From the NCBI GenBank assembly GCA_005240025.1, contig SBBK01000010.1, forward strand, positions 1 to 6,454: 6,454 nt of DNA, written 5' to 3'. Source of the stretch: an archaeon (GTDB lineage Archaea > Thermoproteota > Nitrososphaeria > Nitrososphaerales > Nitrosopumilaceae). The translations under genes and the position numbers were made by a program. A model generated the notes under the pieces. The model saw only the letters and a list, made by a program, of their open reading frames with translations. It was not told the DNA's origin and did not search any database. Positions within the stretch are counted from its first letter, which is position 1, and each line of letters opens with the position of its first letter. This document shows, one piece after another, positions 11-5,587 of this stretch.

Positions 11-244
11 ATGGAAACTGGCACATCGCGTCACGATATCAAAAAGATTTTGAACGATATCAAAAAATACAAGCAATCCACAGATCAAGAAATAAGGCTG
101 CTTAATTTGAAAATCTCCAGGTTACAAAAAATTATAGAAAAAAACACAATACAAGAAGACAATCCAGACAAATACGAGATTAAAGCAATAAGGGATTTCG
201 AAGCAAAAAAGAAACAAATTGAATTCCTTCCGCTAGATTCTTAG
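11..244 (+). CDS. Small antitoxin-like protein paired with a RelE/ParE toxin
   Basis: This 77-residue, lysine- and glutamate-rich protein lies directly upstream of a RelE-fold toxin. That position, the size and the 2-base gap to the toxin start are the main evidence that it is the cognate antitoxin. Residues about 8-45 (HDIKKILNDIKKYK through LQKIIEKN) have a heptad-like spacing of I and L and probably form one long helix or a short coiled coil. The tail, EIKAIRDFEAKKKQIEFLPLD, resembles the acidic/basic C-terminal arm by which RelB-type antitoxins wrap their toxin. No ribbon-helix-helix, AbrB or HTH DNA-binding domain is evident, so any autoregulation is uncertain. The ATG at 11 is the only start seen, but just 10 bases precede it in the window, so a longer N-terminus cannot be excluded. 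I recognise no specific family by sequence. Confidence 0.6.
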   Translation: METGTSRHDIKKILNDIKKYKQSTDQEIRLLNLKISRLQKIIEKNTIQEDNPDKYEIKAIRDFEAKKKQIEFLPLDS

Positions 245-246
245 CT

Positions 247-504
247 TTGCCAATCCGGGTTTTAATTAAAAAACAGGTCCATAACAAATTTGCGCAATTT
301 CCACCCGATCTACGATTGCGAATCAATACCGCATTAAATGAGCTTCAAAACATGTGGCCTACATGCAGACTTGATATAAAGAAACTAAAGGGATATGACA
401 ACCATTACCGAATCCGGGTCGGAGATTATAGGATCTTATTTTTTCGGGAAGCTAATGTTGCAATGATTTACGACATATCGCATAGAAGCGACGTATACAT
501 CTGA
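247..504 (+). CDS. RelE/ParE-superfamily toxin (type II toxin-antitoxin system)
   Basis: This 85-residue protein has the usual length and layout of the RelE/ParE fold: an N-terminal strand (PIRVLIKK), two helices (VHNKFAQFPPDLRLRINTALNELQ), then the conserved beta-sheet. The family signature is clear: KKLKG at 45-49, YRIRVGDYRILF at 54-65 and ISHRSDVY at 77-84. RelE members cleave mRNA in the ribosomal A site and ParE members poison gyrase. The basic R55/R57/R62/H79/R80/Y84 set leans towards a RelE-type RNase, but this is inference. The start is TTG at 247, two bases after the upstream TAG. No in-frame ATG is available and no good ribosome site is seen, so translation is probably coupled to the antitoxin. 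The gene converges on bioF, leaving 113 bases between the two stops. Confidence 0.82.
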   Translation: MPIRVLIKKQVHNKFAQFPPDLRLRINTALNELQNMWPTCRLDIKKLKGYDNHYRIRVGDYRILFFREANVAMIYDISHRSDVYI

Positions 505-2748: not shown

Positions 2749-2833
2749 CAAACCCTCATTGACTTGCCAAACCTCACGATGTCCTTCCGATTGTTGTTCA
2801 TGTGTACGAGTCACAACATCTGCCGCCTATTTT

Positions 2834-2867
2834 CTGACATACTCCCAACCCTAAAGGGTTTGGGGTT
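2834..2867 (-). repeat. IS200/IS605-type right-end hairpin, copy 1 (at the tnpB stop)
   Basis: The core at 2838-2860 is identical over 23 bases to 5525-5547, and with flanks the match covers about 33 bases with three differences. It contains AACCC-TAAA-GGGTT, a perfect 5-base stem. Outside one bulged base, CCC pairs with GGG, giving an 8-base stem. The tnpB relic's TAG stop (2851-2853 on plus) lies inside the hairpin. In IS200/IS605 elements a subterminal hairpin at the right end directly follows tnpB and forms the 3' scaffold of the omega/reRNA, so position and structure both fit. Confidence 0.7.
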
Positions 2868-3520
2868 CTACAGTCACCGGCATCCCGGCGTTGCTGTTTT
2901 GTGGGGTATCAGTGCTCCCATTACACAAATCGCTTTGTTCGCGCAACCGATCCATGATATGTGCCAATGGCACAAAGGCACAATGCGATACCGGATTTCC
3001 GATATTAAATGCCGCATTGACGTCCGCATGATCTGCGTGTCCGCACCGGACACACTGGAATCTTTTTTGTTTTCGGTTACCCAAAGACCCGCATCTAGAA
3101 CATGTCTGGCTTGTGTATGCTGGTGCGACATGGGTGACCTCTATTCCACACATTTTGGCCTTGTACTGGACGAATTTCTGTAGCGGATAGTACGACCAGG
3201 AGTTTATGGAATATCGAAATGATTTGTGATGCGTTTTGTTTTGTCTGATGCCGGACAGATCCTCAAATCGTATGCTGGATTTTTCAGATGTGGCTATTTG
3301 TATTATTTTTTTGATATCTGGTGGTTGATGTTTCTAATGATGTTTGACTCCCTAGACTTGATCTGGCGCAACAACAGGTACCTTCCTTGTTTTTGCAGTT
3401 TTGCCCGAATGTCGCGGTATTTTTTGTGTGTGTGGATTGCCTGCAAAAGACGCCGTACATGCCGTGTGCCGTGGATTGGGCGGTGTGATACGGCACAGGA
3501 CTGCACCAGCTGGTATTCAA
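2851..3520 (-). pseudogene. tnpB: Truncated, frameshifted TnpB of an IS200/IS605-family element
   Basis: TnpB is an RNA-guided RuvC-like nuclease of IS200/IS605 transposons. Two frames together encode its C-terminal half. The first, ending at 3303, includes HTHKKYRDIRAKLQ and NINHQISKK. The second, from about 3333 down to 2851, includes SIRFEDLSGIR (RuvC-II glutamate, codon 3264-3262), SINSWSYYPLQKFVQYKAK, AYTSQTCSRCG and FQCVRCG (zinc ribbon), and HADVNAAFNI (RuvC-III aspartate, codon 3024-3022). The frames join at A7 (minus strand, 3312-3306). Eight A would restore a continuous ISKKIIQIA reading. Farther upstream LEYQLVQSCAVS (about 3521-3486) resembles a decayed RuvC-I segment with the catalytic Asp replaced by Tyr, a tentative alignment. 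The N-terminal half is absent, since only about 70 bases separate this point from the next gene. No tnpA is present. Homology is firm to about 3450 and tentative beyond. Confidence 0.85.
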
Positions 3521-3589
3521 GGTGTGATGCAGCCGACAGTTTTGTGTATGAACGCCTCAGCCGAGCACGGTACGTATAGTAGGAATGAA

Positions 3590-3813
3590 ATGAACGAACT
3601 GTGGCAGTGCGGAGTCTGCAAGTCGATTGTGACAAGGGACCAGATTGACGGCAAGTGCAAGACCTGCAAGAACAGGACATGCACCACTGCAAGAGGACGT
3701 GCGACAGATGTCTGGAAATCTGTTGCGTGTTTCACAGTGATGCGAAGTTGGTCATGAGACAACAGCAACCCAACATCCACAAACTGTGTTGGATATGCAA
3801 GAGCATTCGGTAG
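3590..3813 (+). pseudogene. Small Cys-rich zinc-binding protein, split by a one-base frameshift
   Basis: Two overlapping frames encode a strikingly cysteine-patterned product. From ATG 3590 comes MNELWQCGVCKSIVTRD, then GKCKTCKNRT, giving two CxxC knuckles. Starting at ATG 3679, in the -1 frame, comes MHHCKRTCDRCLEICC, then HKLCWICKSIR and TAG 3811-3813. Joined, they make a protein of about 74 residues with four or five metal-binding pairs. Past 3680 the first frame continues without a Cys pattern to a TGA near 3757, so the join is plausible. An AGGA lies 5 bases before ATG 3590. The stop is 6 bases from the convergent abiEii stop. I do not recognise the family. It could be a frameshift mutation, an assembly error, or two tiny coupled genes whose start overlaps in ACATG. 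Zinc binding is inferred from spacing alone. Confidence 0.45.
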
Positions 3814-3819
3814 GCCAGG

Positions 3820-4755
3820 TTACTTTGGGCCGTCTATCATCCTGACTAGCTTTTTTAGATATTCAGTGAGTTCTCTGACGAACTTGATGAACTCTTCCTC
3901 ATTGATCTTTGAGACAAGTAGTCCCTTCTCAGTTCCCCAGTCAAAGATCTTGCCTTGTTCGATGAGCTTCTTTTTCGATCTAAAGTTTGTTTGGTACTTG
4001 GCATAAAGTCCGAGCGTGTGTTTCGTCTTTCTGATTACGTATTTTTCTACGTCGGCCACCCTGATGCCGAGATGTTTCTGGATAAAGTAGATATCGAGAA
4101 AATCTCTTGCCTTTATCCCCTTTCTTGTGAGCAACGCCCTCACCTTTTCGCTCAGAATTTCCTTTGCCCCACAGACATGGAAAGGAATGGTTTTTGAGTA
4201 TTCTTCGTACTCGGCGAACAAGGATGCCATCTTTTTGTCATTTTTCCTGATGGCGCCGTGTAAGCGCCCGGTTTCAGGTTTTGTGCAAATGTCTTCGACG
4301 AAATTTATCTGAACTTTGATGAACGTGTCAGTTTTCTGAACTTCTGAATAATACCACATTTTGAAGGTGCAAAGCTTGTTGCTACCTCCCAACTCGACGT
4401 GCCTTCTGTCGCTTTTTACGCATTTGAAATCAAGTCCTCTTTTCTTGGCTATGGCCTCGAAGGTTTTCCCCATGTCGTCGATGAGGTCTGACAGGTCCCT
4501 TCTGATTTCATTCGAGGATTTTTTATCAAACCTCGATTGATCTTTCCAGGTGAAGTCAATGTCTTCGGAGAATCTGAGATACCCAAGATGGTGCTTTATC
4601 AAACATGTGCCGCCCTTGAAGAGAAAGTTTTCTGAGAAGAACTCGTCATTAGAGAGGTCTGTCAGAATCTGGTGAAGTGTGATGTCCTTTTCCACCATGT
4701 CGAGCCTTTTGGTCTTGATTTTTGTTGCTACCTTTTTGATAAAATCTAAATTCAT
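3820..4755 (-). CDS. abiEii: AbiEii-family nucleotidyltransferase toxin (type IV TA / abortive infection)
   Basis: This 311-residue protein carries the ordered motifs of the AbiEii/MenT-like nucleotidyltransferase family. FLFKGGTCLIK at 44-54 supplies the GG(S/T) nucleotide-binding turn. LRFSEDIDF at 60-68 supplies the metal-binding D65/D67 pair. FIKVQINF near 145-152 supplies a further strand, ILSEKVRALL at 200-209 the conserved E203/K204, and ARDFLDIYF at 216-224 D218 and D221. Known relatives transfer nucleotides onto targets such as tRNA acceptor ends and block translation until the antitoxin relieves them. AbiE was first described as a phage-abortive system. The length is in the family range and the gene looks intact. 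ATG 4755 overlaps the abiEi TGA in ATGA, so translation is probably coupled. It ends 6 bases from the convergent split zinc-protein gene. The target here is unknown. Confidence 0.9.
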   Translation of the reverse strand: MNLDFIKKVATKIKTKRLDMVEKDITLHQILTDLSNDEFFSENFLFKGGTCLIKHHLGYLRFSEDIDFTWKDQSRFDKKSSNEIRRDLSDLIDDMGKTFEAIAKKRGLDFKCVKSDRRHVELGGSNKLCTFKMWYYSEVQKTDTFIKVQINFVEDICTKPETGRLHGAIRKNDKKMASLFAEYEEYSKTIPFHVCGAKEILSEKVRALLTRKGIKARDFLDIYFIQKHLGIRVADVEKYVIRKTKHTLGLYAKYQTNFRSKKKLIEQGKIFDWGTEKGLLVSKINEEEFIKFVRELTEYLKKLVRMIDGPK

Positions 4756-5387
4756 TTGATCACCAGCCCCACCGCTCTTTTTACGGTTTTTGGATAATTC
4801 ATCGCATACTTACGGAGTTTCTTTTCTGATATATCCTTGATCCAGTCTCCAACATCCATGGCTATCTTTTCAAATGTCATGCCCTCATGTCTTGAGAGAT
4901 AAATGAAGTCCAAAATTGTTTTTTCAGGATCAGAATACCGTATTATCTCCTCCTCCCTCACTCCGAATTTAATCAATGGTGGTGACAGTTTGATGAACCT
5001 GAATTTGTAACCGGCAATGTTGATAGGATTCGCTCTGAACAGTGAATCGCTAATCACCTCATCAATCGTGAAATACTCGTGCGTCATGTTGTTACGCTTC
5101 AGCGCAGTGTGCAGCCCGAAATACCAGTTCTTCACTCCTTTCAATTCAAGGCCTTTGGCAACAAGCTCCAGGTGATTGTATTTGGCCCTCCCAAGCATCA
5201 AACCCTCAGGAGAACGCACGTAGAATATGCCTCTAAATATCCTTACCAGATGGCCACGGTGAACGAAGTTTTTTACCGTGGTGGTGTAATCCAGCTTCAT
5301 AGTCTTGCAATACAACTTCAGATCGGCCGCGGTGACAAATTCTTTCTTGTCTATCCACAACTTTTCAAGCAAAATGCTTACTTTCAC
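4752..5387 (-). CDS. abiEi: AbiEi antitoxin / transcriptional repressor
   Basis: This 211-residue partner of AbiEii has the expected two-part structure. An N-terminal winged helix-turn-helix spans roughly 5-60 (FVTAADLKLYCKTM, TTVKNFVHRGHLVRIFRGIFYV). It is followed by the antitoxin domain with YFGLHTALKRNN (89-100) and YSDPEKTILDFIYLSRHEG (151-169), a segment typical of AbiEi proteins. In studied systems AbiEi neutralises AbiEii without a stable complex (type IV) and represses its own operon by binding inverted repeats in the promoter. A strong candidate operator lies just upstream at 5411-5442. The start is GTG 5387, because the next upstream in-frame codon is a stop. An ATG at 5391 is in another frame. 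GAGG lies 11 bases ahead of the GTG, a rather long spacing for a ribosome site. First gene of the operon. Confidence 0.88.
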   Translation of the reverse strand: MKVSILLEKLWIDKKEFVTAADLKLYCKTMKLDYTTTVKNFVHRGHLVRIFRGIFYVRSPEGLMLGRAKYNHLELVAKGLELKGVKNWYFGLHTALKRNNMTHEYFTIDEVISDSLFRANPINIAGYKFRFIKLSPPLIKFGVREEEIIRYSDPEKTILDFIYLSRHEGMTFEKIAMDVGDWIKDISEKKLRKYAMNYPKTVKRAVGLVIK

Positions 5388-5410
5388 TCATATCACAACC
5401 TCTCAGTATA

Positions 5411-5442
5411 TGAGATATTGTGACATATATAACAATATCTCA
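5411..5442. promoter_or_regulatory. Probable AbiEi operator: inverted repeat around a TATA-like element
   Basis: TGAGATATTGT (5411-5421) and ACAATATCTCA (5432-5442) are perfect 11-base inverted arms around a 10-base spacer. The TGAGATATT half-site recurs directly at 5448-5456, and a shorter CTCA...TGAG pair lies at 5402-5414. On the minus strand the spacer and first base of an arm read TTATATATG (5432-5424), a good archaeal TATA box for a transcript starting near 5402, about 15 bases before the abiEi GTG. A repressor on these arms would block TBP. The assignment to AbiEi rests on its known autoregulation and on position. Confidence 0.65.
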
Positions 5443-5504
5443 CTTGTTGAGATATTATGATATATGTCTCTAGGCTTAAATCTAGGCCTAAAAACAGGCA
5501 CTTG

Positions 5505-5527
5505 GCGGAAAGCCGCATGCCTGGCAT
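5505..5527. repeat. Two adjacent small hairpins beside the orphan right end
   Basis: GCGG-AAAG-CCGC (5505-5516) is directly followed by ATGCC-T-GGCAT (5517-5527), whose right arm runs into the right-end repeat. With the hairpin at 5532-5551 this makes three consecutive inverted repeats in about 45 bases. Each stem is short, so chance is possible for the first two. Confidence 0.35.
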
Positions 5528-5554
5528 ACTCCCAACCCTAAAGGGTTCGGGCTT
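5521..5554 (-). repeat. IS200/IS605-type right-end hairpin, copy 2 (orphan)
   Basis: This copy has the same 23-base core and orientation as copy 1 at 2838-2860, and the match extends to about 33 bases with three differences. The AACCC-TAAA-GGGTT stem and the outer CCC/GGG pairing with one bulged base are both conserved. Farther out on the tnpB-proximal side AGAA is shared with a one-base gap, and then similarity ends. No tnpB sequence was found next to it on the minus strand, so it is a solo end, either a scar of a lost element or a recombination product. Confidence 0.65.
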
Positions 5555-5587
5555 TCTCGCTCGCAATTTGTAAAAGGTGGAAAAAGA

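What the first reader, a model, noticed from the sequence alone, without database searches (positions are those of the whole stretch)
2834..5554. AbiE operon, split zinc gene and tnpB relic bracketed by two same-orientation IS605-type ends
A 23-base identical core (about 33 bases with three differences) with a conserved bulged hairpin occurs at 2838-2860 and again at 5525-5547. Copy 1 is in the expected place at the end of a tnpB. Copy 2 has none. Everything between them is accessory. Two direct copies could allow excision or gain of the AbiE cassette by recombination, or record successive insertions of one element family. The sequence shows the repeats. The mobility is inferred.
Basis: partly seen in the sequence, partly recalled or inferred. 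Interest (0 to 1): 0.72.

Follow-up and report, generated by a model that had tools for sequence, protein, structure and literature searches.

The report
Two stray jumping-gene scars beside AbiE
The two matching hairpins around an AbiE toxin-antitoxin operon in what is likely an ammonia-oxidising archaeon are probably not the two ends of one mobile unit: one is the right end of a decayed tnpB element, and the other is a complete 49-base element that joins left-end and right-end sequence of the same family in one hairpin, like at least 12 others in this genome, so the AbiE genes most likely lie between them by coincidence.

Summary
The repeat is real: 2834-2867 and 5521-5554 match at 31 of 34 bases with a 23-base identical core. 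The bracket is not supported. At least 24 copies occur in this fragmented genome. Full tnpB elements carry a similar hairpin at both ends, in direct orientation, with different outer sequences: left TTAC...AAAG-hairpin-ATGAAAGCG, right GAAC-hairpin-AGTATGTCAG. Copy 1 is a right end joined to a frameshifted tnpB that lacks its first 141 of 355 residues and its left end. Copy 2 is a whole 49-base element (5521-5569, beside target TTAC) with left-end sequence before the hairpin and right-end sequence after it. Thirteen such fusions, five identical, sit at unrelated loci. Guide and cleavage tetranucleotides are those of IS608 apart from one paired change at the right end. The same object, a 52-bp 'terminal-only PATE' made by repeat-mediated deletion, is published for Haloquadratum. 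A same-orientation pair within 2.7 kb arises in 19-40% of simulated genomes. AbiE homologues in two relatives lie elsewhere. None of 17 relatives' nadC loci read carries bioB, so the proposed empty-site test could not be run. New member of a known kind.

The parts
2834..2868 (-). Copy 1: right end (RE) of an IS605-type tnpB element. Cleavage site TCAG (2834-2837), hairpin 2844-2864, guide GAAC (2865-2868), on the minus strand
   Evidence: RE-left/RE-right class, right-arm score 18 of 18; homologous to the right ends at C51, C191 and C98
2854..3497 (-). tnpB relic: TnpB residues 142-355 in two frames (frameshift near 3306-3312); residues 1-141 and the left end not found
5521..5569 (-). Copy 2: complete 49-base terminal-only element. 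Right cleavage site reads CCAG in place of TCAG (5521-5524), hairpin 5531-5551, left guide AAAG (5552-5555), left terminus to 5569
   Evidence: (LE-left/RE-right fusion)
5570..5573 (-). Target tetranucleotide TTAC adjoining the left terminus of copy 2
   Evidence: IS608 rule from passages of PMC5934647
3820..4755 (-). AbiEii (predicted nucleotidyltransferase toxin of a type IV toxin-antitoxin system); lies between the copies
4752..5387 (-). AbiEi (predicted antitoxin/regulator), GTG start, overlaps abiEii by 4 bases
5390..5468 (.). Inverted repeats in the abiE promoter, likely the AbiEi operator; the stretch is partly conserved beside AbiEi of G016 and G006 and ends before copy 2

Best explanation
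The two repeats are most likely two separate remnants of one IS608-like tnpB element family: copy 1 is the right end of a decayed tnpB element and copy 2 is a complete 49-base element in which left-end and right-end sequence meet within one hairpin, so that the AbiE operon between them is probably a bystander. Shown: full elements carry similar hairpins at both ends in direct orientation (19 of 22 bases alike in C51 and in C191); 13 copies, copy 2 among them, have left-end sequence before the hairpin and right-end sequence after it; these sit beside TTAC at unrelated loci. Inferred: a full element enters single-stranded DNA 3' of TTAC; its two direct hairpins later recombine or slip during replication and delete the tnpB core, leaving a one-hairpin scar, as a retrotransposon leaves a solo LTR. 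Some scars may then have been copied in trans. AbiE probably arrived by separate horizontal transfer.
For: Inventory of 24 copies on 19 contigs of the own genome: 4 LE/LE, 4 RE/RE, 13 clear LE/RE fusions, one weak fusion (C31), and two whose left side fits neither end (C124 and a second, degenerate C181 copy; the script labels both RE/RE on left scores of 6/21, and I set them aside); 0 of 24 show the reciprocal RE-left/LE-right form. Copy 2 in local-alignment scores: right arm 16/18 to RE and 7/18 to LE; left arm 16/22 to LE and 3/21 to RE. Full elements: C51 (left end 1309, right end 2559, open 355-aa TnpB, NF040570 at 147.6 bits over a cut-off of 100) and C191 (tnpB in pieces). TTAC, AAAG and GAAC/TCAG against IS608's TTAC, AAAG and GAAT/TCAA, the last guide and last site base changing together. 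The same 52-bp product, from 22- and 19-bp direct palindromes, with four strain pairs showing core deletion, is published for Haloquadratum (PMC3119063). Solos of other subfamilies in Nitrosotalea, Nitrosotenuis and REEA26 contigs. The G005 solo sits in a 137-base spacer between hisB and hisH, which abut or overlap by one base in 11 of 11 relatives compared. Chance of a same-orientation pair within 2,687 bases: 0.19, 0.32 and 0.40 for 15, 20 and 23 units.
Against: No clean empty site or full-versus-solo allele was found in this lineage: relatives are about 70% identical in DNA at nadC, and the G005 spacer holds about 85 bases besides the solo. The paired hairpins of the two surviving full elements differ at 3 of 22 bases, less alike than the Haloquadratum repeats. 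No Y1 transposase was found in the own genome (0 matches, MAG 79% complete) and only in 1 of 17 genus genomes, so what moved the elements is unknown. Five identical solos and two shared derived variants (C33/C177 lack the same two bases; C76/C109 share GCGAGCGAG) suggest copying of solos rather than only repeated collapse. The simulation ignores contig ends and gives 60-81% without such a pair.
Confidence: 0.84

Rival explanations
1. Composite transposon: copy 2 serves as a left end (TTAC, guide AAAG, hairpin) and, its own right site being changed to CCAG, the next intact right end on the same strand is copy 1, so 2834-5569 would move as one single-stranded unit carrying AbiE.
For: Orientation and order on the minus strand are right: left-type terminus at 5569, right terminus with intact GAAC and TCAG at 2834; copy 2's own right site is altered.
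Against: Copy 2 is a whole solo like 12 others; no transposase gene found in the genome; AbiE in G016 has no copy found within 4.4 kb; a chance pair is not rare.
Confidence: 0.06
2. One reading: homologous recombination between the two direct copies gains or loses AbiE and leaves one repeat.
For: 23 bases identical in direct orientation; deletion between such hairpins is documented in Haloquadratum.
Against: No allele with a single repeat seen; 0 of 17 relatives' nadC loci read carry bioB or bioF, so the locus cannot be compared. Loss would be ordinary repeat-mediated deletion, not a cassette system.
Confidence: 0.06
3. Generic regulatory or terminator hairpin conserved for function.
For: A hairpin near gene ends could act so; of the 12 main-subfamily solos listed, 3 overlap no ORF of 70 aa or more, and the ORFs overlapping the other 9 were mostly not checked to be genes.
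Against: Copies end sharply at TTAC and TCAG with unrelated flanks; left-end and right-end forms match tnpB element ends; a match in only 6 of 41 genomes, the own included; the G005 copy is absent at hisB-hisH from 11 of 11 relatives compared.
Confidence: 0.04

Closest known systems
Terminal-only PATE (HqIRS46 core-deleted form; ISHwa23 52-bp form) of Haloquadratum walsbyi, PMC3119063 (passages and section 30 read)
   Same: About 52-53 bp with target; one near-terminal palindrome left; fusion of the two termini of an IS605/IS1341-type element across direct palindromes; tnpB parent; no terminal inverted repeats
   Different: Different lineage and sequence; no strain pair here shows the deletion; hairpins of the surviving full elements are less alike; here the ends follow IS608's TTAC/AAAG rule and solos outnumber right ends 13 to 4 in one MAG
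IS608 (ISHp608), IS200/IS605 family, PMC5934647 (passages read)
   Same: Target TTAC kept at the left; left guide AAAG; subterminal hairpin at each end; right guide and cleavage site GAAC/TCAG against GAAT/TCAA
   Different: No tnpA in the element or found in the genome; most copies found are reduced to one hairpin
Free-standing IS605 stem loops of Borrelia plasmids, PMC2775950 (abstract and outline read)
   Same: IS605 end hairpins scattered without the transposase gene
   Different: There the left and right motifs are reported apart and some follow lipoprotein genes; here single loops are left/right fusions with both termini
REP sequences and TnpA-REP, PMC8266576 (search listing with start of abstract only)
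   Same: Short palindromes that may be non-autonomous elements moved by a Y1-type enzyme
   Different: Nothing I read links REP to fused tnpB element ends; no Y1 enzyme found in this genome

Membership tests
IS200/IS605 family, tnpB-only (IS1341-like) group, IS608-like ends | Target tetranucleotide beside the left end (TTAC in IS608) | tested here: met
   Seen in 4 of 4 left ends and in 13 of 13 main-subfamily solos; one search's pattern required TTAC and is not independent; C31 shows none by eye
IS200/IS605 family, tnpB-only (IS1341-like) group, IS608-like ends | Guide 5' of each hairpin matching its cleavage site | tested here: met
   AAAG with TTAC at 4 of 4 left ends; GAAC with TCAG at 4 of 4 right ends; IS608 AAAG/TTAC, GAAT/TCAA. 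Solos have AAAG but no GAAC
IS200/IS605 family, tnpB-only (IS1341-like) group, IS608-like ends | TnpB with Cas12f1-like_TNB domain | tested here: met
   open frame at C51, broken in the window
IS200/IS605 family, tnpB-only (IS1341-like) group, IS608-like ends | Y1 (HUH) transposase TnpA in the element or genome | tested here: not met
   0 matches to PF01797 in the own genome, 79% complete; 1 of 17 genus genomes. That tnpB-only groups are still filed in the family is recalled, so I claim IS608-like ends and a tnpB-only member, not an IS608 member
Terminal-only PATE (copy 2) | Too short to code, near-terminal palindrome, no terminal inverted repeats, both termini present | tested here: met
   49 bases, one hairpin, left and right termini
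Terminal-only PATE (copy 2) | Deletion product of a longer element shown by strain comparison | not testable with these tools
   No close strain found; relatives too distant
AbiE type IV toxin-antitoxin system | Adjacent AbiEi and AbiEii genes | tested here: met
   PDLC02273 1.4e-45 and PDLC02321 1.4e-62; frames overlap at 4752-4755
AbiE type IV toxin-antitoxin system | Toxin neutralised by antitoxin; phage defence | not tested
   Bench work

The most novel reading that the evidence does not exclude
The 49-base single-hairpin fusion is itself a mobile element, copied in trans, and so among the smallest transposable DNAs: it moves with one hairpin, the left guide only and both cleavage sites. 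Five perfect copies at unrelated loci, two pairs of solos sharing derived variants absent from the full ends, and a hairpin base that is G in 13 of 13 solos but A in 4 of 8 full ends (Fisher p 0.012) are what such copying would leave.
Probability: 0.33. Interest if true: 0.55.

Novelty: new member of a known kind. Interest (0 to 1): 0.3.

Why it matters
It turns a suggestive 'AbiE cassette between two ends' into two likely ordinary element scars, and gives a rule for reading such repeats: compare what lies on each side of the hairpin with the left and right ends of full copies. It extends the solo, LTR-like form of IS605-type tnpB elements from haloarchaea to Nitrosotenuis/Nitrosotalea-type archaea with IS608-type guides, and points to a genome rich in single-hairpin copies in which their mobility could be tested.

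Tried and rejected
Copy 2 as the left end of the tnpB element at copy 1: rejected, its right arm is RE-type. AbiE as constant cargo: strong matches in 2 of 40 relatives, AbiEi in G016 and G006, AbiEii in G016 only; the other matches (G027; G017 twice, G008) were weak, E about 5e-4 to 7e-4. Empty site at bioB-nadC: no bioB or bioF match in 17 of 17 nadC loci read; several are cut short by contig ends or by my choice of stretch. bioB in viral contigs: 24 pattern stretches, none a relative. Repeat in viral contigs: 0. A strict pattern found only 6 copies in the own genome, so counts come. In one search I compared hisB-hisH in 11 of the 18 other genomes with a match; the rest (partial matches or loci not given to the script) were left out. 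Papers: searches listed 1, 2 and 1 papers, none titled on such elements in Nitrosotenuis or Thaumarchaeota; passages of PMC6563490 mention IS200/IS605 in thaumarchaea, and its text holds 0 uses of 'MITE' or 'TnpB'. One protein search of an ORF ending in a solo gave two homologues of 51% and 48% identity whose last residues differ; not carried further.
Full report
What is in the window. On 6,454 bases (contig C109 of a 1.35-Mb, 238-contig, 79% complete genome) lie bioF and bioB (minus; names from domains and recalled families), copy 1 with a tnpB relic, a frameshifted small zinc-type ORF, abiEii and abiEi (minus), copy 2, and nadC (plus, cut by the window). The genus is inferred to be Nitrosotenuis: contig G003:C150 of a same-genus genome and the named record JAENJF010000069.1 (Candidatus Nitrosotenuis sp. 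CoA_2_bin.53) have the same length, 7,241, and the same element. That this genus oxidises ammonia is recalled.

The repeat. The 34-base pair with a 23-base identical core is the longest repeat pair of the window. In the own genome the copy 1 region has 19 matches (E up to 0.001) and the solo consensus 23 (E up to 1). I classified 24 copies on 19 contigs by comparing the sequence on each side of the hairpin with full-element ends. Four are left ends (C51, C191, C208 twice), four are right ends (C51, C191, C98 and copy 1), thirteen are left/right fusions (copy 2, C22, C33, C50, C68, C76, C117, C125, C177, C181, C193, C231, C237). C31 scores as a weak fusion and shows no TTAC by eye. C124 has a left part unlike either end but carries TTAC and AAAG by eye; a second C181 copy is degenerate; the script called both RE/RE on weak left scores. 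The reciprocal form was seen in 0 of 24.

Anatomy. Left end: TTAC, AAATTGCGAGCGGG, AAAG, a hairpin of the type CCCGAACCCTTTAGGGTCGGG (with up to three changes), then ATGAAAGCG. Right end: GAAC, hairpin CCCRAACCCTTTAGGGTTGGG, then AGTATGTCAG. The two hairpins lie in direct orientation about 1.2 kb apart in the C51 element, which has an open 355-aa TnpB; left and right hairpins agree at 19 of 22 bases in C51 and in C191. In IS608, insertion is 3' of TTAC, the left guide is AAAG and the right guide and site are GAAT and TCAA (passages of PMC5934647). Here the right pair is GAAC/TCAG in 4 of 4 right ends: the last guide base and last site base differ together.

Copy 2. Read on the minus strand, 5573 to 5521 is TTAC followed by 49 bases with left-end sequence to AAAG, the hairpin, and right-end sequence ending CCAG instead of TCAG. 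Of thirteen solos listed, five are identical to the consensus and the others have one to six differences; the flanks look unrelated. So copy 2 is complete and needs no partner. The tnpB element of copy 1 lacks TnpB residues 1-141 and a left end. Folding: the bulged hairpin is the best fold of copy 2 and part of the C51 right-end fold, but the solo consensus prefers two small adjacent hairpins and copy 1 another fold.

Why the bracket is probably chance. With 15, 20 or 23 randomly placed units in 1.35 Mb, at least one same-orientation pair within 2,687 bases arises in 0.19, 0.32 and 0.40 of 20,000 simulations each (contig ends ignored). AbiE homologues occur in G016 (AbiEi 64%, AbiEii 54% identity) and G006 (AbiEi 66%, at a contig end) among 40 relatives, on other contigs than nadC. 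In G016 the nearest copy found is about 4.4 kb from AbiE. The similarity to G016 spans 3741-5489 in pieces, including part of the inverted-repeat promoter and the last stretch of the zinc ORF, but not copy 2 beside it. This fits separate transfer of an AbiE block.

Comparison with relatives. The solo consensus matches 6 of 41 genomes, the own included, all of the same genus. An exact pattern for hairpin plus right terminus hit 7 contigs in the GTDB species collection (the own genome may be left out there): six are solos by eye (TTAC, AAAG, hairpin, right terminus) from Nitrosotalea, Nitrosotenuis and 'Thaumarchaeota REEA26', with several left-end variants, and one Freyarchaeota copy shows no left end. 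This suggests that several subfamilies have produced the same fusion. In G005 a solo lies between hisB and hisH, 137 bases apart, while the genes abut or overlap by one base in 11 of 11 relatives compared (10 same genus, 1 same family; 11 of the 18 with a match). About 85 bases of that spacer are not the element, so this shows gained DNA but not a clean empty site.

How it works (inferred steps marked in the statement). The published parallel is close: in Haloquadratum, HqIRS46 and the tnpB element ISHwa23 are reduced to 52 bp by deletion between 22- and 19-bp direct palindromes; HqIRS46 is four times complete in one strain and core-deleted in the other; six strain-specific ISHwa23 insertions are all of the 52-bp form, which 'may indicate' that it moves (section 30 of PMC3119063). 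Here the data leave open whether solos arise one by one or are copied. For copying: five identical solos, shared variants C33/C177 and C76/C109, and a hairpin base G in 13 of 13 solos against 4 of 8 full ends (p 0.012, letters entered by hand). Against: solos lack the right guide GAAC, and no Y1 transposase was found in this genome.

Verdict. Observation confirmed and extended; 'successive insertions of one family' supported; AbiE bracket not supported. Known kind, new lineage as far as searches show.

Noticed in passing
window 2821-2922 (minus); L011 2471-2571; L010 2656-2757; L009 2994-3093: Rfam HgcC (RF00062) matches 4 of 4 right ends of this tnpB family over model positions 1-130 but weakly (19.2-21.5 bits, gathering 50; none of 21 genomes reaches the cut-off). 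Its consensus ends GGAACCCCCGCCCUUUAGGGCGGGGAGGAGGUCAG, like guide, hairpin and TCAG of an IS605 right end, so HgcC is probably the omega-RNA/right end of tnpB elements. Three of five expressed T. kodakarensis HgcC lie in transposase genes and two do not (PMC4247193 passages); 0 held papers contain both 'HgcC' and 'TnpB'.
   Followed up: partly
window 5390-5468: Overlapping inverted repeats upstream of abiEi, partly conserved in G016 and G006: likely AbiEi operator.
   Followed up: partly
window 3590-3813 (plus); L118 about 6550-6630: Split CxxC (zinc-type) ORF after abiEii; a short stretch of it (MRQQQP...CWI) recurs beside AbiEii in G016, so a zinc gene remnant may travel with this AbiE.
   Followed up: partly
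window 11-504: Small ORF pair ending in a ParE-like toxin (PF05016, 25.9 bits, cut-off 23); a ParE-like frame also lies near nadC in G008 (L092 2186-2341, 35% identity).
   Followed up: no
G007:C6:156417-156629 (L144): The only Y1 transposase match in 17 genus genomes, in a short frame divergent to a 404-aa frame that looks TnpB-like by eye; the locus did not show this family's hairpin at the mismatch level tried.
   Followed up: partly
L133 (C208) 11-211 and 5003-5072: Two left ends in one 5-kb contig; the first is followed by about 200 bases of element and then no further blastn similarity, the second runs into the contig end.
   Followed up: no
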